Virus record (IMG/VR): IMGVR_UViG_3300025316_001109
Location: 1 to 46,575 of that record
Origin: a virus
DNA: 46,575 nt
Strand: one strand, 5' to 3'
Part shown: piece by piece, positions 12,371 to 44,979 of the stretch
Position numbering within the stretch: the stretch's first letter is position 1
How the letters are laid out: every line of letters starts with the position of its first letter
Position numbers and translations under genes: made by a program
The notes under the pieces: model-generated
Database searches by the model: none
What the model saw: the letters and a program-made list of their open reading frames with translations, nothing else
What the model was told of the DNA's origin: nothing

Positions 12371-12649
12371 ATGAATGAAAATGAAAACTACACCTGCGGC
12401 ATAGTCGCCGTTGTGATCTACGCGGCAATAGCCCTGCTTTTTATTATTAACGAAATTAGTCGTAAGCGTATGAAAACACTGGGAGCCTCGGCTACGGTCG
12501 AAGATATTGAGAAATTAATTAACGAGTACTTCTACCCGGCTACTTACAAAGTAGACAGGGAAACTCTTGCCGTGTCTAACTCCACCGGAGAACGCTCCGA
12601 CCTTCTTGTCGAGGAGCGTAATGGCCGGTATTATTTTAGAAGGAAATGA
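12371..12649 (+). CDS. Small membrane-anchored protein (92 aa)
   Basis: Starts MNENENYTCGIVAVVIYAA. It has one hydrophobic segment at residues ~9-28 (GIVAVVIYAAIALLFIIN), then a basic stop-transfer NEISRKRMK and a soluble C-terminal domain of about 55 residues (ATVEDIEKLINEYFYPATYKV ...). The topology would leave the domain in the cytoplasm. The stop overlaps the next ATG by ATGA. The function is unknown; the context of two membrane proteins next to a phosphatase gives no pathway. Confidence 0.7.
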   Translation: MNENENYTCGIVAVVIYAAIALLFIINEISRKRMKTLGASATVEDIEKLINEYFYPATYKVDRETLAVSNSTGERSDLLVEERNGRYYFRRK

Positions 12650-32900: not shown

Positions 32901-35752
32901 TAGAAGAACAAGGGGGCAGGGTAACAGATGCTGAGGATGCTTACAATGATAAGAACCGCAGCATAGGACGGTCAACGTATGAAAGCCAAGAATTTGAACG
33001 CAACGAAATGGGGGTTACCCGCGATGCTTACAAGGCTATTATTAAAAGCAAAGCACTTGACACCCTAGCGGATGTACCGCTATCTCCTGATACAACGCAG
33101 AACATGCGTAAAATTGGACTGTACTTGCAAGCCAAGGATATACAAGAAGCAATTGAACTGGGTTTAGTTGACCGTGGAGAGCTGGGATTCTTTGAAGAGA
33201 TAGGGACGTTTCACACGGATTACATAAAAGAGTTTGAAGCGGCTGTTTCTCCTGCCTTCCGTAAGGACTTATGGGCAGCAGTGAATAACGCCACCCGGTA
33301 CGGGTTGGATCAAGAGTTGAAAGCAGGGTTAATGACCACTGAAGACTACGACAAACACGCAGCACGGTTGTTCTATGTTCCTCAAAGAGGCTGGGATGAA
33401 CGCGATGTTGCTAACATAGACACCCACTACAATAAAGGAGGCGGGTCAATGTACGGAGACCCTTACAACGCGGTACTTATTAAAGCCAAAGGTCGCCAGA
33501 GTTTAGGGTCAGACCCTTTGCACTTTATTCAGAGCATGGGGCACAGTGCCCTATTGACCGCTGAGAAAAACCTATACAAACAAAAAGCCCTGAACATGGT
33601 TCGGGTTAATATCGAAATAGGTCGTCAAAGCGGGGCTTTCAACTTTAAACAGGTTTGGTATCTGAATACAGGAACTAAAGATACCAGTGGCGCAATAATA
33701 TACGATGAGATATTTGAACGCCCGGATCAAAAATTCTTTGAAGAGGATAAAGCTACCCGTGAGGAAATAAAAGGACTCAAAAGCCAGATTTCCGAAGCTA
33801 TAAAAGAGGGAGACCATGACAAAGCGGACGATATTAAACTGCTTGTGGACGAAGCCATCGACCGGATAAACATACAACACGATGTCAATGACGCGTACAA
33901 ACGTACCCGGACTTCCGGCGAAGCCATACAACACGAAGTGCAGGTTTATGATAGGGGTGAGAAATTTATTATCTGGTTTAAGGATGAAAGAGTGGCTAAT
34001 GCTTTGAATAATGCTACTGACGGACAGGTTACACCGTATCTACAAAATGTGATTGGCAGGTCAACCCGTTGGTACTCGTCAATCATGACACAGTATAACC
34101 CTGCTTTTGCAGCGTGGAACTTCATGCGTGATATTGAGCTGGCAAACATAGCCCTGCCAATGGAAGAGGGGCTGGTATTTACAGCAAACTTCAATAAGAA
34201 CGTATTTAACCCCCAAGTATCTGCCGCAATTGTAAGGCATCTGACAGGGAAAGAAAAACGTAGTATTGCAGCCGACAAAATATTGGATAACTTTTTTGCT
34301 GATGGGGCTGCAACAGGGTTTACTTACTTGAAAGATCTAGACCAGATTAAGAAAGATTTGCGCAAAGCCATAGAACCTACCTTGCTGGAAAGTACTTTAG
34401 GCAGCCAGTTGAACTTACTTAATGCAAAAGCACTAGGAAAAGCATTCTCGGCTCTTACTGAGTATAGTGAGTTGGTAACTCGTTCCGCTGCCTATAAAAC
34501 AGCTATTGAGATGGGTTACAGTCGGGAGAAAGCGGCTACACTTGCCAAAGAACTAACGGTAAATTTCAACCGCAAAGGGTCTGACACGAAGGTATTCAGT
34601 TCAATGTTTGCCTTCTTCAATGCCTCGGTACAGGGAACAGTGAGAGCCTCAAGACTTGCAAAATACGGAAAAACGTTTGCAAGCATAGTAGCCGGATTAG
34701 CTGTGCTAGGATTCATTAACACTCTTTTCAACCCTAACGATCCTGATGATGAAAAGAACTGGAGTGAATTTGGCCGAATGCAAAACGTGATACTATTTGG
34801 TGTTAAGTTACCGGTTACTCATTTTTTCCGTGCATTTTGGGCAACGGGTGTACAAGCGGCTTTAGCTTATCAGGGTCAAAAGACAATCAGCAACGCGCTG
34901 TTTGATTCATTTAAGAATTTTTCAAACGAGGTATTACCTGGCGGGATCAACCCGATTAATGCTTTTACTTTCGATACGGAGTCTAATTTTGTGAAGTATG
35001 ACGGACTTAGGGACTTTGTGCCATCAACAGCGCAGCCAATAGCCGACGTATTGAACAATCGCACATTTACAGGTGCAACGGTACACCGTGAAGCATTCAC
35101 AAACAAGGATAAAGTGCCTCAAGCATTTTTGGGGAAACGTGATGTAAGTCCGGCAGCGCAAGCCTTCTCTGATTTTCTACTAGAGTTCGGCGGTGGAGAC
35201 AAGAATATAAAAGACACCTACAATGCTAGAGGCGAAAAGATACCTTTTATATTCGATGTGAACCCTTCGGATGCGGAATACCTTGTAACTGGTTATACGG
35301 GCGGGGTTGGTAAATTTGTCATGGATATTTACAAAGCGACCAGCGGACTTATTGAAACAGGAGAGGTTGATCCTTCCAAACTACCGGTTATAAACAGAGC
35401 CGTTAAACCCTATAACGAAGATAAGGTATTTTTCGGTAAGTACTATGAGTTGATGAACAGGATTAAAACCTACGAGAACTCTACCAGTGTTCGCAAAAAG
35501 TCATTTGTGCAAGAGGGCGCAGTTTACAGACCAGCAATCAACGACTTTGTAGGTATGATGTCTTCTCCACAGGGCAGATTGATATACCGGGCTAAAGGAG
35601 TTCAGGCGCAAGTTGAAAAAATGCAAGACCTGATTGATAAATCCCACAAGTCTGGGAACCAAGAAAAGGCGAAAGAGTATCAAACTAAAATGAACGGATA
35701 CATGAAACAGATAGATGAGTTACTTGATGAGTGGAAAAGTACTAAGAACTAA
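20960..35752 (+). CDS. Giant polyvalent protein (4930 aa): protease, InPase-like, methylase and helicase domains
   Basis: Two ~29-residue repeats with GYDxGDxNxF lie at 1-58, and hydrophobic segments at about 258-295, 316-340 and 423-447. A zincin-like site HEQAH is at 1065-1069. An inorganic-pyrophosphatase-like domain (NPKGSTRSGVD, DHIDVFVG) spans about 1370-1490. A DarB-like N6-methylase (YTGWGGLAAVF near 2288, NVPFG near 2417) and an SF2 helicase follow: AHEVGTGKT near 3050, VDEAHAYKK near 3230, ATGTPISNT near 3282, QRNGRIMRQG near 3568. The C-terminal 550 residues resemble LPD38, with a membrane helix near 4573-4592. Such proteins are packaged and injected with the DNA, protecting it from restriction and other defences. 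At about 550 kDa it is exceptionally large and has no internal stop. Confidence 0.93.
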   Translation: MAEPLSQTLYNTLTKDGYDLGDYNSFSEKVSNPAKAKVLYDSITKDGYDVGDFNTFHSKVATPMARPSETAEVNPFFTPEIEQGAKQPASIAVTPTTNIPRQGQLDSTSSNAPVTEIPASELPGDEANTNRIKIPDLNYGVTPLQNDAIQTSDNYPSIKLDNAKQNIIQNSPAVTVDKPHVTKEKKFDERVFDSAVSSVNALGGAVEGAVGDYFKKMNGIWGAKWMDDLGGWFTKQSDAVQETTEKNAPIKSGLPEMVGSLLPIAAATVADVYSGGLLTPAIMSTFGASGYGDGIRAYDDIKKQTGGESNEYARTGAGLAYSVIMLGTMNALGKFGVKGVQQLSKSPIITRAIESVFKSNPTAFEGGASELMQAYAKAQPTFAKQLLTNGIHSVATMEGMELSKMGVNAAIGQHQTLQDWTNTATSAAVTGVLFTMVAPFSIKYADAANVSRRNAQGEVTIGMKGDIPVEIIDTKEGNKGLTPDNKLVDIDQNTIQNSFTMTTKHFNQVLDNLKQTKTIEPNLERNAFGNRVAQTLTKLQSSPGVITTAVDAQGNKAYVSGKDKDGNLVGFDANGQIQVIDPNAKLESAPIGSVHDAIMGKWDEVNGNAAPKPDLTPRIEQVKADIQQQQQAATQQITDIANRDTGAVQTVKLADGREVNLTGGNIALTEEGKIDFSNTDKVLYYLDENGTKQMISSDQVNSLVSHTPVDQAIAQSHEQIANATLGKANYQRGMAVVLLNPDGSPQLGDTGKPVSTKLTNVTDNGVEFTTADGQPMQLTFDEAYKMLGHATDHMDYKPGQAFDVDGVTHVIQHPNADGTYKVTAFPQGAEPYDVDVPAEEIDKFVQPLTNSVKTDVVNSQPQKQFPLDKDGQIDFNAITDPTNLADAYTQEFGDQSKGIIEKSIEYVQGLVAKAQAIEEPVKQLRELKKAQGKLDLLNAAKGLLGSDTMPTEVWAAEENTPVETPIQNNSLSLPDRFDNATTLEEKHAAAAEIADKLEGLFPVAKTAALCSTRQDFKNVLAENKSSKLSKAIDKGLVQGCFWKNKVFLNLQDISNTAELVVTWAHEQAHAIVDRTFTKQELEDLYASTDKAVIIDLLPDADLTNSPDVQANEAIAYAIERIFGTSEPEALATGSVQVPEAIAGQKDLSEKVIKVLQILTNNTNHGTNISDGSGQALHDANNPETERPVDGTAEQGASTNIGGQADGLDPASSGRVPGTGGIKPAHAIGEEVVYQGGNYKVNAVGHDVSTGEVIYDLDTLDGKVAHEDVPQGELNKDEAVTVTPVTEPSLTQQRDELQAKSDALRAQASTADKAESAKLYGQAGALNKRIKALNEQIAAEESAKIATSIAEQEPNLSPTEAQQLAGNYKKAHITVQGMDVTVENPKGSTRSGVDEDGKEWEHVMNSHYGYFKRTEGKDGDHIDVFVGDNPISEKIFVVDQTKKGTGVFPAFDESKVMLGYNSPEEAKAAYMENYDKDWDGFYAITEVGVEDFKKWLYDGAKQHKPFHEYKETPAPVEKVDPQKQTELDFVKGAPLDSFTVRHSANNLDQTFILTDKKVQRDRETGISNPFQIYTFSKYDSGETFLNRYNSFETLEDAKRMMEWYKKEGTVDSGLQPIRRYEGKNSDGVAESTVKIAVKKGELDKAYDWTWKPYPSTRAGKGYAIGRLIEEAVELWKTPYEKASDKDGHEEAIREALKAGRLDVETYNRLHGIDYGMYGGQGFVRNFSEALKPAIDYTSARNNFIKKSVSPATKKILDTLEKQLDGTLKTKARSIEELANRGIFANEKTELVAKRAKSSDENAIWSSTGYYINSEETKFTLNGYYVSKTEYEYSKYLKSIVKQETEKLAVVYTDGRTPEGKKALIDAIKAKFEANKKDEPRFRQQIKEVERFNKITAPNGTILQDNEHANEHSRRKSQGRVSSDQTEGQSAEEWEKENWERFAETAKGYVNQVSKGYLSPEDLYDLFSIFKSLRKYAYDTADFSVEDMDDIAAVLSHEGYINWDDEGTRDYFENIYQGLKEQGRNTPRFHQKSELDKNILVDGYQLSAYILDEGNVAFPDYANQMVDAIGQDIIPYLKTMYVGSMWFPGMEKFRSQMSSVDEVDTFDLTKNLTQIQNNVTDNSVSLGTKTNDHESNTEQLGGNSPLENGGELAGSAPSNGAERTTTPPKTDRRNSTGSDKLAGDSSSERRGQGGSEGNSGGYAEPITEGGVSSGETDKQQQDGGNLPQSETVGQTRNTRNYVIPRGTDVAPRGDVAKITANIAAIKLAKKLNESGAIATPEQKDVLAKYTGWGGLAAVFKPDNARYQTLKDALTTDQYDSARASTTTAFFTPPAEISATWDMIQKLGFNGGEILEPSGGIGHFFGLMPRSISENSNLRGVELDTVSGLIFKALYPDAKINISGFEEQRIANNSLDLVVSNVPFGAFKVHDKVDKDLSNKFDIHDFFIAKSVRKLKPGGLGVFITTSSTLDKSTALRNWIINEGNADFIDSVRLNSDTFKQAAGTEATADIIIIRKRDANGKSEFAKNLQDVVAQRETPYTQDKKTSWGSIYGTEEKTATMRINKYFADNPEKMAGEMKFGFEGGNDIRPTEQRLAPVKGISQEQVLSNFVGSLPTNIFGAEPISTERKSVESDGTKEGGLTVIDGVPHMIEYGRAVPMDWNDNKVSGRTKSQVVEDYNAIKTAVTTLLEAENNDSPNIETLRKNLNKVYDSFVKQYGYLSKNAKIPFLRDDVDFPAISAIENVNDVTRPLANKKEFDITKSDVFSKRVIDKQQTLKADNVTDAVKVSMYQSGRVDIPYIATLTGVSEEKAKAEILDKRIGFVNPSTGLVDERSNYLSGNVRQKLAIAEQANEAGEYNTNIEELSKVIPSDIPMHLIKVSLGSTWIPTKAYDKFFEETFGVTSNIQKTSGDKFMGNFQSQRNMKDAQAGVMGATGSQIALNGMNNTGTTIYRWEYVDGQRKSVKDVVATAQAAAKQAELNEQFDAWAKSGANPYAEEMANYYNTTFNAVVPKTVDASSFESFPGASRVKIPREHQKEGTLRTLEAATLLAHEVGTGKTITLISSAMEMRRLGIAKKPCIVVQRSTYDQFVKEIKELYPQAKVLVPSAKDLTAAQREQLFAKIAYNDWDIVVLYHGYLDSIPDDPDRVNQYIDEHIQEKIDLMNEVRASSDPNAKRMASGIEKEIKGLEERKTPSVKQEEKTKAKASAKAEKLLDRRTDNGMTFEQLGIDALLVDEAHAYKKLGFSTSLKGVKGIDVGASQRAQSLRLKSSYILENNNGKNVVFATGTPISNTMAEMWTFLRYLLPKSELDRLQMTNFDSFVNNFGTIEESSEFSTSGKFKVTNRFSSFSNVPELIQAWKQIAHTVLTEEVATLKEGVGTPRVESGKPIDNMLKQTLPLKMVMKSIKQRLQDFENMTGKEKKENSHIPLVMFGLAKRAAIDVRLVDPNLPDDPNSKLNETVKAVLSDLKDTKDYKGTVAVFCDSYQSSDKGFNVFEDIKQKLIDEGIPAEQIAIVNDYTTDEKKSVLWTKVNAGDVRVVMGTTEKLGVGVNIQQRLHTLIHMDAPVRPSDYQQRNGRIMRQGNDHLPMDKTIKILRIGVEQTLDVTGYQRLEIKKKFIDQIMKGDVSHRSLDEAEVEGSDSNNFSQMMASLSGSQAALAYSIEQNKLRKLQNASEYHDKNQIFMSSEVKRNENIIKTTGGIIDGLQKQRAEVKAIFPDGRVLSVTIGNTEVKTTEEIDGLIAKTLTKRIDKEVEDLRVDMERETAEIKTSMLINGKKFNLTVNIKRDYDVVNHKTRVSRQIDYQSADYADLNGSAGAKVENLIGIVNDFISLRGFDEDIRKRGIGVEKAIRENEAYKPQIGQPFPKQKEIEAAEKRAEELDAQMRKELAEIEAKEAAENVQAVDISAGLEEEEPRFRQVTLPVKPKFEGDLKAYSQAMKEYQDKASEVLPELAQELDTAFSNAKDEFLRKRQDADRFIKLQQRFVEEQGGRVTDAEDAYNDKNRSIGRSTYESQEFERNEMGVTRDAYKAIIKSKALDTLADVPLSPDTTQNMRKIGLYLQAKDIQEAIELGLVDRGELGFFEEIGTFHTDYIKEFEAAVSPAFRKDLWAAVNNATRYGLDQELKAGLMTTEDYDKHAARLFYVPQRGWDERDVANIDTHYNKGGGSMYGDPYNAVLIKAKGRQSLGSDPLHFIQSMGHSALLTAEKNLYKQKALNMVRVNIEIGRQSGAFNFKQVWYLNTGTKDTSGAIIYDEIFERPDQKFFEEDKATREEIKGLKSQISEAIKEGDHDKADDIKLLVDEAIDRINIQHDVNDAYKRTRTSGEAIQHEVQVYDRGEKFIIWFKDERVANALNNATDGQVTPYLQNVIGRSTRWYSSIMTQYNPAFAAWNFMRDIELANIALPMEEGLVFTANFNKNVFNPQVSAAIVRHLTGKEKRSIAADKILDNFFADGAATGFTYLKDLDQIKKDLRKAIEPTLLESTLGSQLNLLNAKALGKAFSALTEYSELVTRSAAYKTAIEMGYSREKAATLAKELTVNFNRKGSDTKVFSSMFAFFNASVQGTVRASRLAKYGKTFASIVAGLAVLGFINTLFNPNDPDDEKNWSEFGRMQNVILFGVKLPVTHFFRAFWATGVQAALAYQGQKTISNALFDSFKNFSNEVLPGGINPINAFTFDTESNFVKYDGLRDFVPSTAQPIADVLNNRTFTGATVHREAFTNKDKVPQAFLGKRDVSPAAQAFSDFLLEFGGGDKNIKDTYNARGEKIPFIFDVNPSDAEYLVTGYTGGVGKFVMDIYKATSGLIETGEVDPSKLPVINRAVKPYNEDKVFFGKYYELMNRIKTYENSTSVRKKSFVQEGAVYRPAINDFVGMMSSPQGRLIYRAKGVQAQVEKMQDLIDKSHKSGNQEKAKEYQTKMNGYMKQIDELLDEWKSTKN
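24450..24623 (+). CDS. Overprinted small ORF in the giant gene (57 aa, frame +1)
   Basis: An ATG-initiated frame, MVRISATEAGKHFTMQITQK and onward to ADEFPEPEE, with protein-like composition and two amphipathic helices. It coincides with a stretch where the main frame is low-complexity (Gly/Ser/Asp-rich) between the zincin region and the next beta domain. It is offset +1 from the main frame, as are two further ORFs of the same kind. It may be an expressed nested gene or the fossil of a gene absorbed by fusion. Confidence 0.3.
   Translation: MVRISATEAGKHFTMQITQKQSDRLTELLSKEPQPISEDRRMDLILQAADEFPEPEE
26649..26804 (+). CDS. Overprinted small ORF in the giant gene (51 aa, frame +1)
   Basis: An ATG-started frame (MEPSYKIMNTRTNILDESL, then KEEYHLTKPKGK and a basic tail) overlapping a Ser/Arg/Gln-rich linker of the main frame. 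The first 25 residues look protein-like and the tail is low complexity. It uses the same +1 offset as the ORFs at 24450 and 27345. The case is weaker than for those two. Confidence 0.2.
   Translation: MEPSYKIMNTRTNILDESLKEEYHLTKPKGKVPKSGKKKTGSVSQKPPKAT
27345..27680 (+). CDS. Overprinted ORF in the giant gene (111 aa, frame +1)
   Basis: Reads MTMRAIQSSWAEIALWKMAE and onward, with NWRDQLLQMAQNEPQHLL, EETVLAAISWQETALANGG and LNPSQRAEYP: balanced, Trp-containing and helical, like a genuine conserved small protein. In the same interval the main frame is a Gly/Ser/Thr-rich linker (GGSEGNSGGYAEPITEGG) just before the methylase domain. The contrast suggests the +1 frame was, or still is, the coding frame here. 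An internal ATG (MAENWRDQ) is an alternative start. No ribosome site is evident. Confidence 0.4.
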   Translation: MTMRAIQSSWAEIALWKMAENWRDQLLQMAQNEPQHLLKQIEETVLAAISWQETALANGGDKGEVKEIAEDMLNPSQRAEYPAEKQISNSKMAEIYRSLKQLAKQETPETM

Positions 35753-35793: not shown

Positions 35794-36198
35794 CTACTGT
35801 TTCTTTACAAGGTATCTCCCTTTCCTTATCACACTTATCTCTTTGTATAGTTTTACCCCTTTGGAGTAATAGTAGACCACAATAACAGCATTCTGTGAGT
35901 CATAATAGGTCGTACCCATAGCGGGAAAATCCACAGACAATGTTCCGTTCCCACTTCCTGACAATGGAGAAACACTTAACCCCGGTACCCTGCCGGATGC
36001 CCCTGCGTTATTCATGTACACAGTCCAAGTAGTGTTTGACTTAATACTCACTGGCAAGGGTCCGCTGGAACTACCGAGAGATAAAGAGCCGGGGCTTACA
36101 ACAAGGGATGTTGTTGTATCCGTTCCATTTAAAGCCGGTTCGTTGCTTGTACAGCTAAATAAGAGGAATACAATTAATAAGAGTATTAGTTTTTTCAT
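35794..36198 (-). CDS. BACON-like lipoprotein (probable lysogenic-conversion gene)
   Basis: A 134-residue protein with a lipoprotein signal (MKKLILLLIVFLLFSC, lipobox Cys16). The mature part matches the BACON/immunoglobulin-like pattern of Bacteroidetes surface proteins: LVVSPGSLSLGSSSGPLPVS, NTTWTVYM, LSVSPLSGSGNGTLSVDFPA and VIVVYYYSKG. It would be exported and anchored in the outer membrane or on the surface. It is minus-strand between two plus-strand late operons and has its own host-type -7 box at 36225-36218, so it can be expressed in the lysogen. Possible roles are superinfection exclusion by masking a receptor, or glycan binding; neither is demonstrated. Confidence 0.85.
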   Translation of the reverse strand: MKKLILLLIVFLLFSCTSNEPALNGTDTTTSLVVSPGSLSLGSSSGPLPVSIKSNTTWTVYMNNAGASGRVPGLSVSPLSGSGNGTLSVDFPAMGTTYYDSQNAVIVVYYYSKGVKLYKEISVIRKGRYLVKKQ

Positions 36199-36239: not shown

Positions 36240-36306
36240 TTAAAACATAGCAACAAAATCTTAAAACATAGCGACTTTGTCGGTAACTTATTAATTTCCT
36301 TTGTGC
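36240..36306 (+). promoter_or_regulatory. Late promoter copy 2 (tandem 21-bp units)
   Basis: Units at 36240-36260 and 36261-36281, both beginning TTAAAACATAGC and differing only in the second half (AACAAAATC versus GACTTTGTC). They are followed by GGTAACTTATTAATTTCC and TTTG at 36299-36302. This is the best-conserved of the three copies and precedes the portal gene start by 44 nt. Confidence 0.78.
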
Positions 36307-36324
36307 AGACATACCTATACCATC

Positions 36325-38322
36325 ATGGCTGCACCAGTAAACTATAAGAAATTCAATAAGAAGGCAGTAATGCCTCAGGCAAAACCTAAAGAACCCGTAC
36401 GTTTTGAACAGGGGTTCAACTCACTCGAGAAGTGGGATAATATGGGCCGACTGCTGAAGTACAAAGATATGTACGATAAGCTGTACAATTTCCGCAAGAA
36501 CCGCCAACGTAACATTGACTATGCCTCGGGTAACCAGTGGGGTGACCTAATGGAAGACCCGGACAGCCCTTACGCAGGGAAAGCCATTACCGAAGAGATG
36601 TATATCAAAAGGCAGGGGAAAGTTCCGCTAAAGAATAACCTTATCATGCCGCTTATTAAGTCGGTTATAGGTACATTCAGGGGAAACAAAACTGAGCCGG
36701 TAGCCATTGCCCGGGATAGGGACGAGCAGAAAGTGGGCGAAATGATGAGTATTGCTATGCAGTACGCCTACCAGCTCAACGATGTGTGGGAGCTTGACGC
36801 GGAGGCGTTAACCGAGTATGTAATGTCAGGGTTTTGTGTACAAAAAGTATCACGCAAATGGTTTAAAGACCGCCGGATATACGATGCTTATGTGGAGTGT
36901 GTGAACCCTTCCGTGTGTTTCTTCAACTCTGACATGGTGGACGTTCGAGGGGATGATTTAAAAACGTTTGGCATACTCAAAGACCTTAGCATGGCTGAGA
37001 TACTCAGCGTGTATGCAAAGACGAAGGAGGATGCTATCCGAATCCGCTCACTCTATGTGAACATGGATGAGAAACTACCGGCCCAATACGATGCTTTCTC
37101 CAGCAAACGCTTTCAGAATATGGACTTCTTTATTCCTTCGGAACAAAGTATGTGCCGGGTTGTTGAAGCGTGGGAGCTGGAATACAAAGAACGACTACGC
37201 ATACATGATACATTAATAGGCGAGCCGGATGTTATTGAGCTAAACCAACGCGCTGAACTTGTGGACAAGGTAAATGCACAGCGCATAGCGGATGCAGTAG
37301 CGCAGGGAGTAGCCGCGGAAGATGTACCACTGATTGAAGCCGAGTGGTTTATTGACCAGTTTTGGTATGTTCGCATATTGACCCCAACGGGTGAGGCATT
37401 GTGGGAGGGTGAAACACCTTTTGAACATCTCAGTCAACCTTTCTGTCACAAAGCATCGCTTATCAACGGCAAAATACAATCTTTCGTAGAGGACGTGATC
37501 GACCAACAGCGGTATATCAACCGACTGGTAACTATGATTGACTTCATTATGGGGGCCAGTGCCAAAGGGGTACTTATATTCCCTGATGATGGTACGCTTA
37601 CCGAGAATGATAAATCTGAAATTCTGGAAGAGTGGGTAAAATATAACGGGGTAATCTTTGCCAAACTCAAACCAGGTGCAACAATGCCACAACAGGTAAG
37701 TACCAACGCTACGAACGTGGGGGCTTATGAGCTGCTTAATATCCAGCTTAAACTGATGAATGACATATCAGGAGTACACGGAGCTATGCAGGGGCAAGCA
37801 CCGCAAGCGGGAACGCCAGCGGCCATGTATGCACAAGAGAGCCAGAACTCAGCAACGAATTTAGCTGACCTGTACGAACGGTTTAACTCGTTCCGCAGAC
37901 AAAGGGACTACATGCTGATGAAACTGATACAGCAGTACTACGATTCACCGAGATATATCAATATAGCGGGTAAGGATTACAGCGAAGAAAGCAAATTCTA
38001 TACGCCTGACAAGGTAAGGGATTGCGAGTTTGATGTGGTGGTAGCTGAAAGCCCGAGTACTCCGGCTTACCGTACGATCATGAACGGCTTCTTATTGCAG
38101 CTATTCCAACAACAAGCCATTGACGTGAAGACTTTACTTGAGAACTCGGCTTATCCGTTCGCTGATCGGGTGCTAAACTCCATACAGCGCAAAGAGGATG
38201 AAATGAAACAAGCACAGGGGGGAGCAGTACCGCAGGGCGGAGGTGCACCGATAGAAGTACCGCCGGAAGTACAACAAGGCGTGAACCCTCTAGTGGGTCA
38301 AATGCTAAAAGGGGCTGCTTAG
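36325..38322 (+). CDS. Portal protein
   Basis: A 665-residue portal of the P22/podovirus-like type, forming the dodecameric DNA entry ring at the capsid vertex. The start is ATG 36325 (MAAPVNYKKFNKK); upstream in-frame codons overlap the late promoter. Typical features are RNIDYASGNQWGD near the start, MPLIKSVIGTFRGNK, the stem region around EGETPFEHLSQPF, DVIDQQRYINRLVTMIDFI, SGVHGAMQGQ and the C-terminal Gly/Pro/Gln-rich tail. It is alone in its transcription unit between the late promoter and a terminator that overlaps the stop. Confidence 0.9.
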   Translation: MAAPVNYKKFNKKAVMPQAKPKEPVRFEQGFNSLEKWDNMGRLLKYKDMYDKLYNFRKNRQRNIDYASGNQWGDLMEDPDSPYAGKAITEEMYIKRQGKVPLKNNLIMPLIKSVIGTFRGNKTEPVAIARDRDEQKVGEMMSIAMQYAYQLNDVWELDAEALTEYVMSGFCVQKVSRKWFKDRRIYDAYVECVNPSVCFFNSDMVDVRGDDLKTFGILKDLSMAEILSVYAKTKEDAIRIRSLYVNMDEKLPAQYDAFSSKRFQNMDFFIPSEQSMCRVVEAWELEYKERLRIHDTLIGEPDVIELNQRAELVDKVNAQRIADAVAQGVAAEDVPLIEAEWFIDQFWYVRILTPTGEALWEGETPFEHLSQPFCHKASLINGKIQSFVEDVIDQQRYINRLVTMIDFIMGASAKGVLIFPDDGTLTENDKSEILEEWVKYNGVIFAKLKPGATMPQQVSTNATNVGAYELLNIQLKLMNDISGVHGAMQGQAPQAGTPAAMYAQESQNSATNLADLYERFNSFRRQRDYMLMKLIQQYYDSPRYINIAGKDYSEESKFYTPDKVRDCEFDVVVAESPSTPAYRTIMNGFLLQLFQQQAIDVKTLLENSAYPFADRVLNSIQRKEDEMKQAQGGAVPQGGGAPIEVPPEVQQGVNPLVGQMLKGAA

Positions 38323-39265: not shown

Positions 39266-41257
39266 TTATATTGTGGCTTCCCCTACTATTTTGCGGGAAT
39301 AGCCGGTTGATTTAGTTGTTTCAATAAGTTGAGGAGCGGGGAGATACTGGTAACACACCCACACCCCGATAGCACGTGTTATGTGCCTGTCATCACGGCA
39401 ACCCTCGACAGCACCCAATGACCCGTTTTCTTTTACTTCCAGTGTGTCATGTTCATCACATGCCGCAATACTGTTTTCAATGTAAAGGTCTTCACGCAAA
39501 GCCTTCTTGTGGTGGTCACAAACCATCTGTTTACTGCTTCGGTTAGTATGAAATCCCCATCGAGCCGGGACACCCTCCCTTATTTTATCTGCCGGAGTCC
39601 GCGAGAATAAGTTTGGGTAAGCGTCTGCTATCTCATCCAGAATATATTCAAAGTGATCACCCTCTGTTTCTTCTGTTTCCAGCGTGTTGGACTCAATAAC
39701 AAGTAGAGAGTTATGGTAGAACTTCGCTATTTGTGCTGCTTTCCACGCCAGTAAATCGTGATCGATATGTCCGCACCACTCAGCCACTACTTCAGGAACT
39801 CCACCCTGTGCCATCCACATACGATCAATAACCGTGATACAACTATTATCAGCTGCCTCACTCCTACCCCCAATATCCACGACGGTAACGTAACGCTGGG
39901 TGTATCGCTCTGCACCCGGTTTAGCCCACACCAACATATTTCCTTCTGCTTCCTCGCGGAATGCCAAGCCTTGTAACGACTCTTTGCCGTTTACACTCTT
40001 ACCGTAAACCTCACCTACAAAAAGAGGCTTCATGCAGCCCTTGCGTAATCTGTCCACGTCCCCGATAGGGTAGAACCTACGACCCGTTGACTGGAAAGCC
40101 TCCACATCATTTGACGGCATTTCGGAAATGAACCGCCACTCGTCACTGTACGCTTTGCGTTGTTCGCGATACCAGTTAATACCTTCGAGGGTTGCACCAT
40201 CTGAAAACATCCGATGCTCTTTCTCGCTCATGCTGTCAATGAACTTCTTGTAGTTGTCTATACTTGACTGGTAGAGTTCAATGTCGAACCACGCCACAAA
40301 CACCGGATCAAAGCCGCTTTCGCCTTTCTTAGCTCTCAGCCATTCACGGTGAAAGAAATTACCCACCCCTTTGGCTGTACTCTCATACACAATCATAGAG
40401 TCGGGCATATTACCAATACCGGAAACAATAGACTGTACAAGGTCTTCGGGTTTTTTCCCTGCTGTTGCAGCCCAGAGTCCGACCTCTGATAAGTGAGCCA
40501 TTGCCGTATCATCACCACGAACACCATCGGGTTTCTCGGCAGAGCCTATTGTTATGCGACAAGCACGTTCTTTTACTTGCCGTGTTTTCTGTGAGTTCTC
40601 AAAGGGGACCAGGTTAAGGGGCTTTATTGTATCCTCATCAAGTAACCAAGTGGGGTAACTCTTTAGTAACTTGCTGTACATTCCCCTGATTACCTTTGCC
40701 GTGTTCTCAACGTGGGCACAAATAACACTGTGCCATTGGCGGCGGCGTACGAGTTGTATCCAGATCATAAAGAGCTGTACAAGGGTTGAACCGCCCCACT
40801 GGCGTGCTTTCAGTAATATAATTCGTATTGGCTTGCCCTCAAGCCACGCCTTGTATAATCTTTTGAGTAGCTTGCGTTGCCCCCGATTAAGGTAAAAGGG
40901 TATGTCTTCTGAGGAGTTCTTTTTCTTTATTACCGCAAATTCATACGCCCAGTACTCAAAATCGAAAGCAATACGCAGTTTTATAAATTGTCGCCATACT
41001 TCCTCTTTTGCCGCCTCGGTTGGCTCTTCCTTTAGCAGGATAAGAAGCCTTTTAATTGTACCCGCTTTGACCAGAGCTTTAACAAGCGGCGTTGCCAGCA
41101 TACCTTCGGGAAGATACATTTTAGCAATTGGCGCATCCGGTAGTTCGACCAGAACCCGTTGACAACTTTCGCACCCCTCACCCGTTAGCGGGTTATAGAC
41201 GGCACGGTTGGCTTTTAATCGCCGCTTGTTCTCTGCTATGATCTCAATATAGGTCAT
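39266..41257 (-). CDS. terL: Terminase large subunit
   Basis: The DNA-packaging motor, 663 residues. The ATPase domain has the adenine-binding-like NRGQRKLLKRL, a Walker A variant KARQWGGSTLVQ near residue 150, and motif-II/III-like DSMIVYESTAKGVGNFFH. The RNase H-like nuclease domain has TVVDIGGRSEAADNS (first Asp), LLVIESNTLE (Glu) and DRHITRAIGVW (last Asp). An N-terminal extension carries a CESC pair. It lies on the minus strand in a cluster with a rhomboid protease, opposite in direction to portal and capsid genes, an unusual order for a phage. Confidence 0.93.
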   Translation of the reverse strand: MTYIEIIAENKRRLKANRAVYNPLTGEGCESCQRVLVELPDAPIAKMYLPEGMLATPLVKALVKAGTIKRLLILLKEEPTEAAKEEVWRQFIKLRIAFDFEYWAYEFAVIKKKNSSEDIPFYLNRGQRKLLKRLYKAWLEGKPIRIILLKARQWGGSTLVQLFMIWIQLVRRRQWHSVICAHVENTAKVIRGMYSKLLKSYPTWLLDEDTIKPLNLVPFENSQKTRQVKERACRITIGSAEKPDGVRGDDTAMAHLSEVGLWAATAGKKPEDLVQSIVSGIGNMPDSMIVYESTAKGVGNFFHREWLRAKKGESGFDPVFVAWFDIELYQSSIDNYKKFIDSMSEKEHRMFSDGATLEGINWYREQRKAYSDEWRFISEMPSNDVEAFQSTGRRFYPIGDVDRLRKGCMKPLFVGEVYGKSVNGKESLQGLAFREEAEGNMLVWAKPGAERYTQRYVTVVDIGGRSEAADNSCITVIDRMWMAQGGVPEVVAEWCGHIDHDLLAWKAAQIAKFYHNSLLVIESNTLETEETEGDHFEYILDEIADAYPNLFSRTPADKIREGVPARWGFHTNRSSKQMVCDHHKKALREDLYIENSIAACDEHDTLEVKENGSLGAVEGCRDDRHITRAIGVWVCYQYLPAPQLIETTKSTGYSRKIVGEATI

Positions 41258-41455: not shown

Positions 41456-41719
41456 TTAATTTTGATTTGCAATCAAACAGTTTACCGCCTGTAACTCTGC
41501 TTCGTATGATTCTTTCAGTAGAGGGATTATTTGTTCTGAGGTGAAAGGGTTAAGCATAAACAGGTCATCGACCAGTCCGCCAAGTTTAACCATGGGTACA
41601 CCTTCTTCCCCCTGAATATCGTTGTTTAGCTCCGCAAGAAGCTCCACGCGTTCCTTTATCACCTCCAGCTTAATTTTAAGCTCCTTCATTTCCTGTTTTT
41701 GCTCTTTTGTCTTTTTCAT
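41456..41719 (-). CDS. Coiled-coil small protein (87 aa), packaging cluster
   Basis: Begins MKKTKEQKQEMKELKIKLEV. The first 35 residues are a highly charged coiled coil, followed by a short turn (QGEEGVPMVKLGG) and two helices (FTSEQIIPLLKESYEAELQAV). Its start overlaps the rhomboid gene 3' end by 44 nt, unusually long here; an internal ATG (MKELKIKL) would shorten the overlap to 14 nt. Unknown function. Confidence 0.65.
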   Translation of the reverse strand: MKKTKEQKQEMKELKIKLEVIKERVELLAELNNDIQGEEGVPMVKLGGLVDDLFMLNPFTSEQIIPLLKESYEAELQAVNCLIANQN

Positions 41720-42188
41720 AAAATCGGTATATTAGCATGAATAAAATTCCGTACAACATGGAGAAAGCGTGAATAAATATATTTGTGTGAGCAAAGTAGT
41801 AAGTGAGTAAGTTGACCGCTACAAAGACAGCCAAGTATATCAGTAAATTCCGGCTGGGGTAAAGAACCACGTAGCATCCGAATAGGAACAGTACGACCCC
41901 CGATGCACCAATAGTGGGTTGTGGCATCTCTGCCCCGAAAGTGGCGAGGTATGCGCCCAGTATCATCACAAAAAAAAGTAGTTTAGAGTTGACCGACCGT
42001 TGCATAGTAGTAAAAAGGAAATGGAACGAAAGCATATTCATGAATAAGTGGAAAAAGGCTATGTGTGTAAACATATAAGTGAGTCTTGTGTAGAGTTCTG
42101 TGTGTGCCGTAAAGCCCAGCACTTTCACATCCGCCCCGAAAGAGATCAGATACACGCAAAAGCAAATTAGTATAAAGAGATTTTTCAT
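41676..42188 (-). CDS. Rhomboid-family intramembrane serine protease
   Basis: A 170-residue polytopic membrane protein with six hydrophobic segments. The rhomboid signatures are in order: YMFTHIAFFHLFMNM in TM2 (His47 and Asn51, the oxyanion-hole pair), PTIGASGVV in TM4 (GxSG nucleophile Ser96) and FIHAFSMLYG in TM6 (catalytic His140). The length is that of the minimal bacterial rhomboid core. The enzyme should cleave transmembrane helices in the inner membrane. It is encoded between unknown small genes and terL on the same strand, so it is likely expressed in the lytic phase. Its substrate is unknown. Rhomboids are rare in phages. Confidence 0.85.
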   Translation of the reverse strand: MKNLFILICFCVYLISFGADVKVLGFTAHTELYTRLTYMFTHIAFFHLFMNMLSFHFLFTTMQRSVNSKLLFFVMILGAYLATFGAEMPQPTIGASGVVLFLFGCYVVLYPSRNLLIYLAVFVAVNLLTYYFAHTNIFIHAFSMLYGILFMLIYRFYEKDKRAKTGNEGA

Positions 42189-42194
42189 ATTGTT

Positions 42195-42605
42195 TTACAT
42201 TGTTTTATTACATTTTTTCTTACCACTACTCAATTTCCAGAAAAGTACACAGGCACTCGACAGCTCCATGTAAAAGCATTCAGCGGGTTGCTTGACTACT
42301 TCTTCAATCACGTCCATCTTAGACACCCCCTTCAACTCCTCTTTGAGAACTATGTATTTGCGGTATATTGCCTCATACTGCCTCTGCTTCATCCGGTGCT
42401 TACTTCCGGTTGTGCCCCTGCGCTCAATATGGTTAATGTGTTCCGCCGCTTCTTCGGGGGTTGTGTAATATCGAGGTGCTTGTGAATTGATAGCTAAATC
42501 AACCAACGACTCACGTGTCATTTGACAAGCTCTTGCCCCAAGTTGTTTTATAACATTGCGGTAGGCTGTCAGTAAGTCCTGATCGCGTTCCTGTCGTAGC
42601 TCCAT
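42195..42605 (-). CDS. Hypothetical protein (136 aa), head of the packaging cluster
   Basis: Begins MELRQERDQDLLTAYRNVIK. The N-terminal half is helical with an HTH-like stretch (CQMTRESLVDLAINSQAPRYYTTPEEAAEHINHI). A basic segment follows (GSKHRMKQRQYEAIYRKYIVL), and the C-terminus is hydrophobic (CFYMELSSACVLFWKL). It is first in the minus-strand cluster and divergent from late promoter copy 3; on its own strand only an imperfect -7 box (TTATTTTG) is seen just upstream. It might be a DNA-binding packaging accessory. I do not recognise it. Confidence 0.65.
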   Translation of the reverse strand: MELRQERDQDLLTAYRNVIKQLGARACQMTRESLVDLAINSQAPRYYTTPEEAAEHINHIERRGTTGSKHRMKQRQYEAIYRKYIVLKEELKGVSKMDVIEEVVKQPAECFYMELSSACVLFWKLSSGKKKCNKTM

Positions 42606-42710: not shown

Positions 42711-42749
42711 GCTTTCACTTTGAATACCCAAAATATAACCAGACTTAAA

Positions 42750-43580
42750 ATGGAAGGACTAGACGAAAACGCGGTACCGGAAACCACCGAAACTGCACAG
42801 CCTAAATCAGCTAACGAGCTTTTTGCAGAGCGAATTAAAGCCAAATACCCTGAACGGGATTACTCGAACCCTGACGAAGTTCACAACGCTTCGATGGAGG
42901 GCTACGATGCTGAACACGAACGTTTGAAAAAAGTGATCGAAAGCAACAAAGCGATTGCGGATCGTATGATGGCAGACCCAAAAGCAGCTGCTGCCTTATC
43001 GGAATTTATGAGCGGTAAACCGCTGCCTGCAGCTTTGAAAAAATACTTTACCGATGATGAGCTATCAATGAATGAGGGGGAAGATGGCTATGCTGAGTAT
43101 TTGGCAGCACAACAAGAGCGCGCGCTTAAAGATGCAGAGAGCAAACAAGCTCAGCAAGAGTTCGCAGATAACTTCGAGAAGAGCCATGAGGAGATCGCTG
43201 CCTATGCCGAAGAAACCGGACGGACAGAAGAGGAAATGACACAGTTTCTGGACGATGTTCAAAAAACTTTCTTCGACCCTTTATTAAAAGGGCAGTGGGG
43301 TAAAGCCTTTTTAGTTATGTGCGATAAAGCTATGAGTCATGACAAAGATGTAGAGGTGGCACAGGAAGTAGGGCGCGTTTCAGGTAAAAACGAAAAGATC
43401 GTTGACCGCAAAAAAGAACGTACAGCTGGGGGCTTACCCGATGCAGGGGCTGGCGGCGGGGCTGCAAATGCAGCGATAGCAGCTAAACCGACTGAGACCG
43501 GGCAGTTCTTCAATAAACTGGCGGATGCCGGGGCTGAAAAAGACATTTGGAAACGCGGCGGTTACGGAAAGAAAGCCTAA
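42750..43580 (+). CDS. Scaffolding protein (probable)
   Basis: The start is ATG 42750 (MEGLDENAVPETTETAQ); a TTG 30 nt earlier is less likely. The 276-residue product is acidic and almost entirely helical (ANELFAERIKAKYPERDYS, ADRMMADPKAAAALSEFMSG, QQEFADNFEKSHEEIAAYAEE). It has a Gly/Ala-rich hinge near 240 (GGLPDAGAGGGAANAA) and a short basic C-terminal hook (DIWKRGGYGKKA). Acidic helix-rich body, flexible hinge, basic tail and a position immediately before the major capsid gene are the hallmarks of podovirus scaffolds. Confidence 0.8.
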   Translation: MEGLDENAVPETTETAQPKSANELFAERIKAKYPERDYSNPDEVHNASMEGYDAEHERLKKVIESNKAIADRMMADPKAAAALSEFMSGKPLPAALKKYFTDDELSMNEGEDGYAEYLAAQQERALKDAESKQAQQEFADNFEKSHEEIAAYAEETGRTEEEMTQFLDDVQKTFFDPLLKGQWGKAFLVMCDKAMSHDKDVEVAQEVGRVSGKNEKIVDRKKERTAGGLPDAGAGGGAANAAIAAKPTETGQFFNKLADAGAEKDIWKRGGYGKKA

Positions 43581-43614: not shown

Positions 43615-44979
43615 ATGAAAAAGCAAAAATTCTCTTGGTTGGGCATAGTCATAATGCTCGTATGTGCCTTAGTGGGCATTGTTGATGGCTCCTCTATGGG
43701 GGTTCATATGGCGGAAGCATCCGTTTTAGAAGGCGGTAACGCCGGTGTGTTTATTACCCGTGAAGGTTTAACTACTGATGTTACACGTGTAGAAAGCCCA
43801 GAATTAATTCGTGACACGGTCGATCAGCGCATTACTAAAATGCGACCCGCATCAACCCCGTTGGATCAGATCATGCGACACGCTACAAGTAAAACTACTA
43901 AAACGATGGAGTTTGGTTACTACTCTACTGACATTCGCCCGGTTAAAGCTACCTTAGCAGTTGCACACGTTGCTGTAACAACTACGGATAGTGCAGATTT
44001 GACAATGGATAACGGTAACTTATTTGATGTATCGGATACTATTTATGTACCATCAGTTAAAGGTTATAACGCTGCCGGAGTTCAGGTAAATAGTCCATTA
44101 GTGCTGTATGTTCGCGCGGTGGGTGCAAGTAACGCGATTACTGTGCAAGCGGTTAACGGTGCTTTACTTACTAACGAGATTGAAGGAATGTATGTTCCTG
44201 CTATCGCCGCTAACGCTAAATTCTATCGTATGGGTAGAGCAGCTGCTGAGGGTGATGTTCAGACTTCTCCTTACAGTGCCTTGCCTACCAAACAAAAGAA
44301 TTTCTGTCAGATATTCAAATGCCAGGTTGCAGAGACTTCTATACAGGCTTTGTCTTTATCGGCTGCTGAAGTTCCATGGACTCCGTCAGATATTGAAGAA
44401 CAGGCAGTATACGAATGGAGATTGGGCATGGAAGCCTCTTATCTGTTCGGCGCAAAACAATATTTCTACGATAATGCTAAGAAGCGTTGGGTATACACCA
44501 CCGGGGGTATTGTAAACAACATCACTAAAGTTATTGACTATCCGACTACAATTACCGATGACGTATTGGTAGATATTACCAAAGACGTATTTACCGGTAA
44601 CAGTGGAAGTAAACGTCGCTTGCTATTTTCCGGATCAGGACTGGTATCTAAGCTAAGTAAGGTGGGTACTATCACTAAACAATTGGAAGCTGGTAACACG
44701 GTGGTCGTTTGGGGTATCGAGTGGAAAGAAATCAAAACTAACTTCGGCTCGTTGCTATTGTTACAACACGATTTGCTTGACCTTTACGGTTGGGAAGATA
44801 AGGGCTTAATTATCGACCCTGCTTGCTTGGATAAATACTCTTTCGCTGGAGTTGAGCGTTTCTCGCTGGACTTGAAAAAAGCGGGTACTTATGACGGTAA
44901 CGTTGCGGTAATAACAGAAATAGCAGGTTTGGCACTGAAATACCCTTCGGTTCACGCTGTACTCCAACCAACAGCCTAA
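43615..44979 (+). CDS. Major capsid protein (HK97 fold, probable) with hydrophobic N-terminal leader
   Basis: 454 residues. The capsid-like features are the N-arm (SPELIRDTVDQRITKMRPASTPL), the two-stranded middle (KTMEFGYYSTDIRPVK), the later helix (PWTPSDIEEQAVYEWRLGME) and the C-terminal strands (KYPSVHAVLQ), between scaffold and adaptor genes. Unusually, the ORF opens with MKKQKFSWLGIVIMLVCALV, a signal-peptide-like helix. The AT-rich leader and the ATGAAAAAG start favour this start, but ATGs at 43696 and 43708 would give an ordinary capsid N-terminus. Downstream of it lies a strong terminator, typical for separating capsid from lower-level genes. Confidence 0.82.
   Translation: MKKQKFSWLGIVIMLVCALVGIVDGSSMGVHMAEASVLEGGNAGVFITREGLTTDVTRVESPELIRDTVDQRITKMRPASTPLDQIMRHATSKTTKTMEFGYYSTDIRPVKATLAVAHVAVTTTDSADLTMDNGNLFDVSDTIYVPSVKGYNAAGVQVNSPLVLYVRAVGASNAITVQAVNGALLTNEIEGMYVPAIAANAKFYRMGRAAAEGDVQTSPYSALPTKQKNFCQIFKCQVAETSIQALSLSAAEVPWTPSDIEEQAVYEWRLGMEASYLFGAKQYFYDNAKKRWVYTTGGIVNNITKVIDYPTTITDDVLVDITKDVFTGNSGSKRRLLFSGSGLVSKLSKVGTITKQLEAGNTVVVWGIEWKEIKTNFGSLLLLQHDLLDLYGWEDKGLIIDPACLDKYSFAGVERFSLDLKKAGTYDGNVAVITEIAGLALKYPSVHAVLQPTA

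What the first reader, a model, noticed from the sequence alone, without database searches (positions are those of the whole stretch)
41676..42188. Phage-encoded rhomboid intramembrane protease in the packaging cluster
The complete rhomboid catalytic set (His47/Asn51, GASG Ser96, His140) is present in a minimal 170-aa protein next to terL. Rhomboids are widespread in cells but rare in phages and have no standard phage function. Lytic-phase expression suggests a membrane substrate: a lysis protein, a host receptor, or one of this phage's own leader-bearing proteins.
Basis: partly seen in the sequence, partly recalled or inferred. Interest (0 to 1): 0.75.

Follow-up and report, generated by a model that had tools for sequence, protein, structure and literature searches.

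The report
Phage rhomboid protease paired with capsid
This gut-bacterial virus carries an apparently active membrane-embedded protease inside its packaging genes, and nearly all related viruses that carry it also make a capsid protein with a greasy membrane-anchoring leader, which suggests that the protease cuts the capsid protein loose from the membrane.

Summary
ORF 41676-42188(-) is a complete six-helix rhomboid protease: Pfam PF01694 E 1.8e-11, AlphaFold pLDDT 95.5, GlpG fold, and H47/N51/G94/S96/H140 invariant in 95 of 95 distinct phage homologues. It is a fixed part of one Bacteroidales phage lineage, not a stray gene. In 132 of 137 loci with it, it lies directly upstream of terL; in 132 of 137 it directly follows a small conserved gene. 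New here: the major capsid protein (HK97 fold, 43615-44979) begins with a hydrophobic leader (residues ~6-33). Among 145 dereplicated relatives, rhomboid and leader go together (61 both, 47 neither, 36 leader only, 1 rhomboid only). My best explanation is that the rhomboid removes this leader, acting as an unusual membrane-bound head-maturation protease. Against it: both traits are clustered by clade (sign test not significant), 36 lineages have a leader without rhomboid, one has a rhomboid without leader, and signal peptidase also fits the site. No cleavage has been shown. Capsid signal peptides are already in print for P. gingivalis phages; my searches found no paper linking a rhomboid to a phage capsid.

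The parts
41676..42188 (-). rhomboid intramembrane serine protease, 170 aa; S96/H140 dyad, H42, H47 and N51 in helix 2
   Evidence: PF01694 E 1.8e-11; GlpG fold; catalytic set invariant in 95 of 95
43615..44979 (+). major capsid protein, 454 aa, HK97 fold; proposed substrate
   Evidence: PF17236 SU10_MCP E 7e-33; structure matches to phage VP1, phicrAss001, SU10 and HK97 capsids
43615..43713 (+). leader of the capsid protein, codons 1-33; proposed cut after A33 (P4 V30, P1 A33, P2' A35)
   Evidence: strongest single N-terminal hydrophobic segment among the virion genes of the window; isolated helix 8-22 then low-confidence linker in the model; G29 and A33 invariant in the five-sequence alignment; the cut itself is inferred
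42720..43580 (+). scaffold-like protein before the capsid gene (start codon uncertain)
   Evidence: phrog_22323; role inferred from position
42195..42605 (-). small conserved gene directly upstream of the rhomboid, in the position of a small terminase gene
   Evidence: phrog_27246; directly precedes the rhomboid in 132 of 137 loci; no PDB relative, so terS is inference
41456..41719 (-). 87-aa ORF between rhomboid and terL, overlapping the rhomboid 3' end by 44 bases
   Evidence: a homologous ORF in L002
39266..41257 (-). large terminase subunit (terL)
   Evidence: phrog_2 E 9.5e-15
36301..38322 (+). portal protein
   Evidence: PF16510 E 2.7e-39
35794..36198 (-). small lipoprotein-like protein; alternative candidate substrate
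   Evidence: N-terminal hydrophobic segment ending in a cysteine; role unknown
12371..12649 (+). 92-aa protein with one hydrophobic segment; alternative candidate substrate
   Evidence: role unknown

Best explanation
The gene encodes an active rhomboid intramembrane serine protease that belongs to the head module of a lineage of Bacteroidales phages. I propose that its main substrate is the phage's own major capsid protein. The capsid protein is made as a precursor whose N-terminal leader (basic start, about 12-17 hydrophobic residues, then a small-residue stretch ending in G-V-x-M-A) inserts in the inner membrane, while a flexible linker lets the HK97-fold body stay in the cytoplasm. The rhomboid clips the leader near V-x-M-A / (D,E,A)-A and frees the subunit for assembly, doing the work of a prohead protease. 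Shown: the rhomboid fold, the conserved catalytic set, the gene order, the leader, and its co-occurrence with the rhomboid. Inferred: membrane insertion, topology, the cut and its timing.
For: Catalytic set invariant in 95 of 95 homologues at about 21% median identity. Fixed place by the capsid block: directly upstream of terL in 132 of 137 loci; in the other five (three lineages) terL lies elsewhere but small gene plus rhomboid stay about 1.4-1.5 kb from the capsid gene. Co-occurrence with the capsid leader: 145 representatives, 61 both, 36 leader only, 47 neither, 1 rhomboid only, Fisher p 4e-14. Leaderless capsid proteins begin about where leadered ones have M-A-(D/E). L088, inside the rhomboid clade, lacks both. 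G-V-x-M-A box in 49 of 60 rhomboid-bearing against 6 of 24 rhomboid-less leaders (post hoc). V, A and A sit on P4, P1 and P2' of the published rhomboid rule in 39 of 58 (rule: PMC2941825, passages). No known prohead protease among the 30 window proteins scanned with Pfam or PHROGs.
Against: Both traits are clustered by clade: on capsid-core trees independent pairs never go the opposite way, but the sign tests are p 0.25-0.5. 36 of 145 representatives have a leader and no rhomboid found. L290/L297/L320 (one cluster) have an intact rhomboid and a leaderless capsid protein. The leader junction also fits signal peptidase A-x-A in 50 of 58. The general P4-P1-P2' motif is in 58 of 60 and 23 of 24 leaders alike, so it does not discriminate. 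The basic N-terminus predicts N-in/C-out insertion, opposite to the N-out substrates screened in PMC2941825. Cleavage was not observed.
Confidence: 0.5

Rival explanations
1. The rhomboid is active but its target is a host membrane protein (receptor masking, superinfection exclusion, or membrane quality control during infection); its place by the head genes is only a convenient late operon.
For: [quoted passage not shown] L290/L297/L320 keep an intact rhomboid without a capsid leader.
Against: Place by the capsid block is fixed over a lineage whose rhomboids share about 20% identity; a host-directed gene would be expected to move and to be patchy. Does not explain the co-occurrence with the leader.
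Confidence: 0.22
2. The capsid leader is a signal-peptide-like segment removed by host signal peptidase I (or kept), and the rhomboid acts on another phage membrane protein, for example the lipoprotein-like 35794-36198 or the 92-aa protein 12371-12649.
For: A-x-A site in 50 of 58. 36 of 145 lineages have a leader and no phage rhomboid. Other membrane proteins exist in the window. Capsid signal peptides are described in P. gingivalis phages, there ascribed to prohead proteases (PMC10367356, passage).
Against: 0 of 58 junctions expose Q after either cut, against the Bacteroidetes Q rule for signal peptidase substrates. Export by signal peptidase would send the capsid to the periplasm. Rhomboid without leader is seen in 1 of 62 rhomboid-bearing representatives only.
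Confidence: 0.2
3. The protein works without proteolysis, as a membrane anchor or chaperone for the capsid protein, like inactive rhomboid relatives.
For: Position in the head module; inactive rhomboid relatives with non-proteolytic roles are known (PMC12615303, passage).
Against: Ser and His are invariant in 95 of 95 homologues; a non-proteolytic role would not hold them.
Confidence: 0.05

Closest known systems
GlpG of E. coli and H. influenzae (rhomboid family, Pfam PF01694)
   Same: Six-helix rhomboid core, GxSG serine, helix-6 histidine, H-x4-H-x3-N in helix 2
   Different: Phage-encoded in the head and packaging cluster; no cytoplasmic domain (170 aa); the L1 arginine R35 is kept in only 65 of 92; about 14-19% identical in the structure alignments
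AarA/TatA of Providencia stuartii (rhomboid trimming the N-terminus of a membrane-inserted protein)
   Same: Proposed mode: an N-terminal piece next to a membrane segment is removed to activate the protein; TatA-like P4/P1/P2' rule (PMC2941825, passages; PMC3712462, abstract start in a listing)
   Different: TatA is N-out and stays a membrane protein; here the leader is basic (N-in predicted) and the product would be a soluble capsid subunit
Prohead (head-maturation) proteases of tailed phages such as HK97 gp4 and T4 gp21 (recalled)
   Same: Proposed role: removes an N-terminal segment of the capsid protein before or during head formation; gene in the head module
   Different: Those are soluble serine proteases; this is an integral-membrane protease of another fold. 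Role analogous, not a member
Other phage rhomboids: Stenotrophomonas phages DLP3/DLP5; BFVD entries of Podoviridae sp. ctsfx1 and ctzXp5
   Same: Rhomboid genes in phages; BFVD matches at TM-score 0.75-0.78 by query length
   Different: DLP3 gp93 is listed beside sugar-modification genes (PMC7326821, passages); the surroundings of the BFVD entries were not looked at
Capsid proteins with signal peptides in P. gingivalis phages ('Nixviridae')
   Same: Major capsid proteins with a signal-peptide-like N-terminus in Bacteroidales phages (PMC10367356, passage)
   Different: There the authors expect prohead proteases to remove it; the passages read mention no rhomboid; sequences not compared

Membership tests
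Rhomboid intramembrane serine protease | Match to the rhomboid domain profile above its curated cut-off | tested here: met
   44.8 bits against 22.6
Rhomboid intramembrane serine protease | Catalytic serine in GxSG/GxS and histidine in the last core helix | tested here: met
   S96 and H140 in 95 of 95; aligned with GlpG
Rhomboid intramembrane serine protease | Oxyanion-hole His/Asn motif in helix 2 (H150/N154 of GlpG, numbers recalled) | tested here: met
   H47 and N51 in 95 of 95
Rhomboid intramembrane serine protease | Six-helix GlpG fold | tested here: met
   Model pLDDT 95.5; all 27 PDB matches at E up to 0.001 are GlpG; six hydrophobic segments
Rhomboid intramembrane serine protease | WR motif of loop 1 | tested here: inconclusive
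   R35 in 65 of 92; the Trp was not examined
Rhomboid intramembrane serine protease | Proteolytic activity on a membrane protein | not testable with these tools
   needs an assay
Prohead protease (functional class) | Membership in a known prohead protease family | tested here: not met
   Only the rhomboid profile matches above cut-off; no PHROG match
Prohead protease (functional class) | Cleaves the capsid protein of its phage | not testable with these tools
   co-occurrence only
Rhomboid substrate (capsid leader) | P4 large hydrophobic, P1 small, P2' hydrophobic next to a membrane segment | tested here: inconclusive
   39 of 58 at the box, but the loose motif occurs in 58 of 60 and 23 of 24 leaders of both groups
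Signal peptidase I substrate (capsid leader) | A-x-A junction, and in Bacteroidetes an exposed N-terminal Q | tested here: inconclusive
   A-x-A in 50 of 58, Q in 0 of 58

The most novel reading that the evidence does not exclude
A large lineage of Bacteroidales tailed phages builds its heads from a membrane-tethered capsid precursor and uses its own rhomboid as the head-maturation protease: capsid assembly licensed by intramembrane proteolysis.
Probability: 0.45. Interest if true: 0.88.

Novelty: new variant of a known kind. Interest (0 to 1): 0.74.

Why it matters
I found no proposed substrate for a phage rhomboid in the papers searched. If the capsid leader is the substrate, this gives an enzyme and substrate pair within one gene cluster, directly testable in cultured Bacteroides phages (BF1-TP2, BS-TP4 and BKO1-TP3 carry both). 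It would also mean that an HK97-fold capsid protein passes through a membrane-bound stage before assembly, and raises the question where these gut phages build their heads.

Tried and rejected
Considered and rejected: (a) Pseudoprotease: the catalytic set is invariant. (b) TAG recoding hiding a rhomboid and a leader in L088: reading TAG as a residue gave no rhomboid, and the weak PF01694 hit there lies antisense in the capsid gene. (c) Another membrane protein replacing the rhomboid between the small gene and terL in the leadered, rhomboid-less Bacteroidaceae clade: in the loci inspected the roughly 1 kb there holds two soluble-looking proteins of about 158-175 aa (14 loci looked at, of which L217 has no such insert and L026/L027 hold one 209-aa protein; the earlier list of multi-pass ORFs was partly cut off in the output). 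(d) A rule without exception: true in the first survey, broken by L290/L297/L320 in the enlarged one. (e) The small upstream gene as a proven terS: no useful PDB match.

Led nowhere: a scan of viral contigs with the rhomboid alignment (not conserved enough to search with); a paper on phage BF1-TP2 (none held); fold comparison with libraries of cellular proteins (not on hand).

Rows dropped before counts: one search dropped L104, L147, L056 and L049; one search dropped 13 loci (8 without terL, 4 with a short stretch upstream of terL, 1 without capsid N-terminus). The leader threshold was moved from 1.3 to 1.45 after seeing L288 at 1.33 with a plainly leaderless start; this moved one lineage from leader-only to neither. 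L001, L241, L242 and L245 (copies) and L006, L007 and L008 (unannotated contigs of other origin) were left out of the rhomboid counts. Many loci are the same contig fetched by two searches, so raw counts are inflated; the 145 (earlier 99) representatives at 90% capsid-core identity are the fair counts. Absence of a rhomboid was judged on the flank held for most loci; whole records were searched for 35 virus records only.

Full report
What is there. The window is one whole virus record of 46,575 bases with an integrase and a CI/S24-type repressor at its left end, so probably a temperate phage. The right part carries a portal (36301-38322, PF16510), terL (39266-41257, minus), an 87-aa ORF, the rhomboid (41676-42188, minus), a 136-aa gene (42195-42605, minus, phrog_27246) and, on the other strand, a scaffold-like gene and the major capsid protein (43615-44979, PF17236).

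The rhomboid is real. Pfam E 1.8e-11. Weak single-sequence similarity to GlpG (E 0.006) becomes E 5e-13 with a profile of 61 phage homologues, aligning the helix-2 H/H/N, the GxSG and the helix-6 histidine. The AlphaFold model has mean pLDDT 95.5, and all 27 PDB matches at E up to 0.001 are GlpG. In 95 distinct homologues of at least 140 aa, H47, N51, G94, S96 and H140 are invariant, while median identity to the window protein was 21% in the first 92. That pattern indicates selection for catalysis.

It belongs to a lineage. Searches with a terL alignment and a capsid alignment gave 80 and 72 viral loci and 80 loci in bacterial genomes; the two terL lists were cut at the best 80. Three cultured Bacteroides phages, BF1-TP2, BS-TP4 and BKO1-TP3, have the same cluster. 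With two further capsid scans there are 137 loci with a rhomboid. In 132 of 137 it is directly upstream of terL on the same strand, and in 132 of 137 it directly follows the phrog_27246-like gene; of those last five exceptions three are contig ends and two are one contig, L002/L089, with a gene inserted. In the five records where terL lies elsewhere (L290/L297/L320, one capsid cluster; L354; L243), small gene and rhomboid stay about 1.4-1.5 kb from the capsid gene. So the steady neighbours are the capsid block and the small gene rather than terL.

The capsid leader. The window capsid protein begins with a basic stretch, a strongly hydrophobic segment and a small-residue stretch ending at A33. 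Its model gives an isolated helix 8-22, a low-confidence linker, then a body that matches phage VP1, phicrAss001, SU10 and HK97 capsids, so its identity as a capsid protein is firm. Relatives split into leadered and leaderless forms. In the first survey hydrophobicity was 1.01 or less, or 1.59 or more; in the enlarged set the leaderless values reach 1.21, and L288 at 1.33 falls between. Leaderless proteins often begin M-A-E or alike, about where leadered ones have M-A-D/E.

Co-occurrence. First survey: 99 representatives, 60 leader and rhomboid, 24 leader only, 15 neither, 0 rhomboid only. Enlarged survey: 145 representatives, 61, 36, 47 and 1 (Fisher p 4e-14). Fisher's test ignores descent. 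On capsid-core trees the rhomboid needs 6-7 changes and the leader 4; independent pairs never go the opposite way but are too few for significance (p 0.25-0.5). Searches of 35 whole virus records without a rhomboid beside terL found one above the cut-off, in G012, which also has a leader and keeps the rhomboid by the capsid gene; a sub-threshold hit in G034 is a chance antisense match. L088, inside the rhomboid clade, lacks both leader and rhomboid, but its record is a 16.7-kb fragment. The exception is L290/L297/L320: an intact rhomboid beside a leaderless capsid protein, nested in the leaderless clade.

The junction. In the 58 of 60 rhomboid-bearing leaders that could be aligned on the terminal Ala, G is at -4 in 46, V at -3 in 42, M at -1 in 42 and A at +2 in 39. 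A G-V-x-M-A-like box is in 49 of 60 rhomboid-bearing and 6 of 24 rhomboid-less leaders (post hoc). V, A and A fall on P4, P1 and P2' of the rule of Strisovsky and colleagues (PMC2941825, passages read); all three are satisfied in 39 of 58. The same junction fits signal peptidase A-x-A in 50 of 58. No Q follows either cut in 58 of 58, which speaks against the Bacteroidetes Q rule as described in PMC10367356 (passage). A permissive rhomboid motif is found in nearly all leaders of both groups and is uninformative.

Mechanism proposed. The leader's basic end predicts N-in insertion (mean net charge about +3 before the core). I infer a loop insertion with the cut site near the periplasmic side and a flexible linker leading back to a capsid body that folds in the cytoplasm; the rhomboid then frees the subunit. 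This orientation is not that of the N-out substrates screened in PMC2941825, and it is the weakest step. In leadered lineages without a phage rhomboid, a host rhomboid (one of 14 control genomes with a match is a Bacteroides) or signal peptidase could do the cut; the exception L290 could be a recent capsid swap or a sign of another substrate.

Prior art. The 2025 rhomboid review PMC12615303 has no word beginning with 'phage' or 'virus' in its main text. Paper searches for rhomboid with phage and major capsid protein, with bacteriophage and intramembrane protease, with prophage and Bacteroides, and with terminase and capsid listed no paper that by title or abstract start proposes a phage substrate; I read passages of DLP3 (PMC7326821), whose rhomboid is listed as a domain hit. 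Capsid signal peptides in P. gingivalis phages are in print (PMC10367356, passage). Two of the three Bacteroides phage records name the product a rhomboid, and BFVD holds viral rhomboid models. So the gene is annotated but, as far as these searches show, not studied.

Verdict. Rhomboid protease: about 0.95. Part of head formation: about 0.7. Capsid leader as its substrate: about 0.5.

Noticed in passing
Genome-contig loci without rhomboid, L181-L221 and others; flanks in L176, L184, L201, L207, L209: A head and packaging block with one gene order recurs in about 27-31 of 64 such loci, mostly Bacteroidaceae MAGs, and in five of them terL lies within about 4 kb of the same host-like genes (one MurB-like, name recalled). 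This looks vertically inherited, domesticated or gene-transfer-agent-like.
   Followed up: partly
L188, L199, L204, L205, L211, L213, L214: In seven Barnesiella loci a terL relative stands between the same host genes, with no capsid gene in the 8 kb held on each side.
   Followed up: partly
window 20960-35752 (+): A 4930-aa ORF, about a third of the genome; the neighbour of the portal in BKO1-TP3 is a similarly giant gene named DarB-like antirestriction. Not analysed.
   Followed up: no
L002 4093-4674 (+): A 193-aa gene, by eye methyltransferase-like, is inserted between the small gene and the rhomboid.
   Followed up: no
L003 8419-10446, L004 8476-10572, L005 7920-8438 and 8431-10545: Public records of three Bacteroides phages name the terL homologue 'tail spike protein', and one names the rhomboid 'glycoside hydrolase': likely misannotations.
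   Followed up: partly
L290 6122-6607 and 7965-9479 (also L297, L320): Intact rhomboid beside a leaderless capsid gene, with terL moved away: the one exception to the pairing.
   Followed up: partly
L008 4896-5456 (record LR745206.1, 634,780 bases): A weak rhomboid match in a huge uncultured phage genome, unrelated context.
   Followed up: no
window 35794-36198 (-): A small lipoprotein-like gene on the opposite strand between the giant gene and the portal.
   Followed up: no
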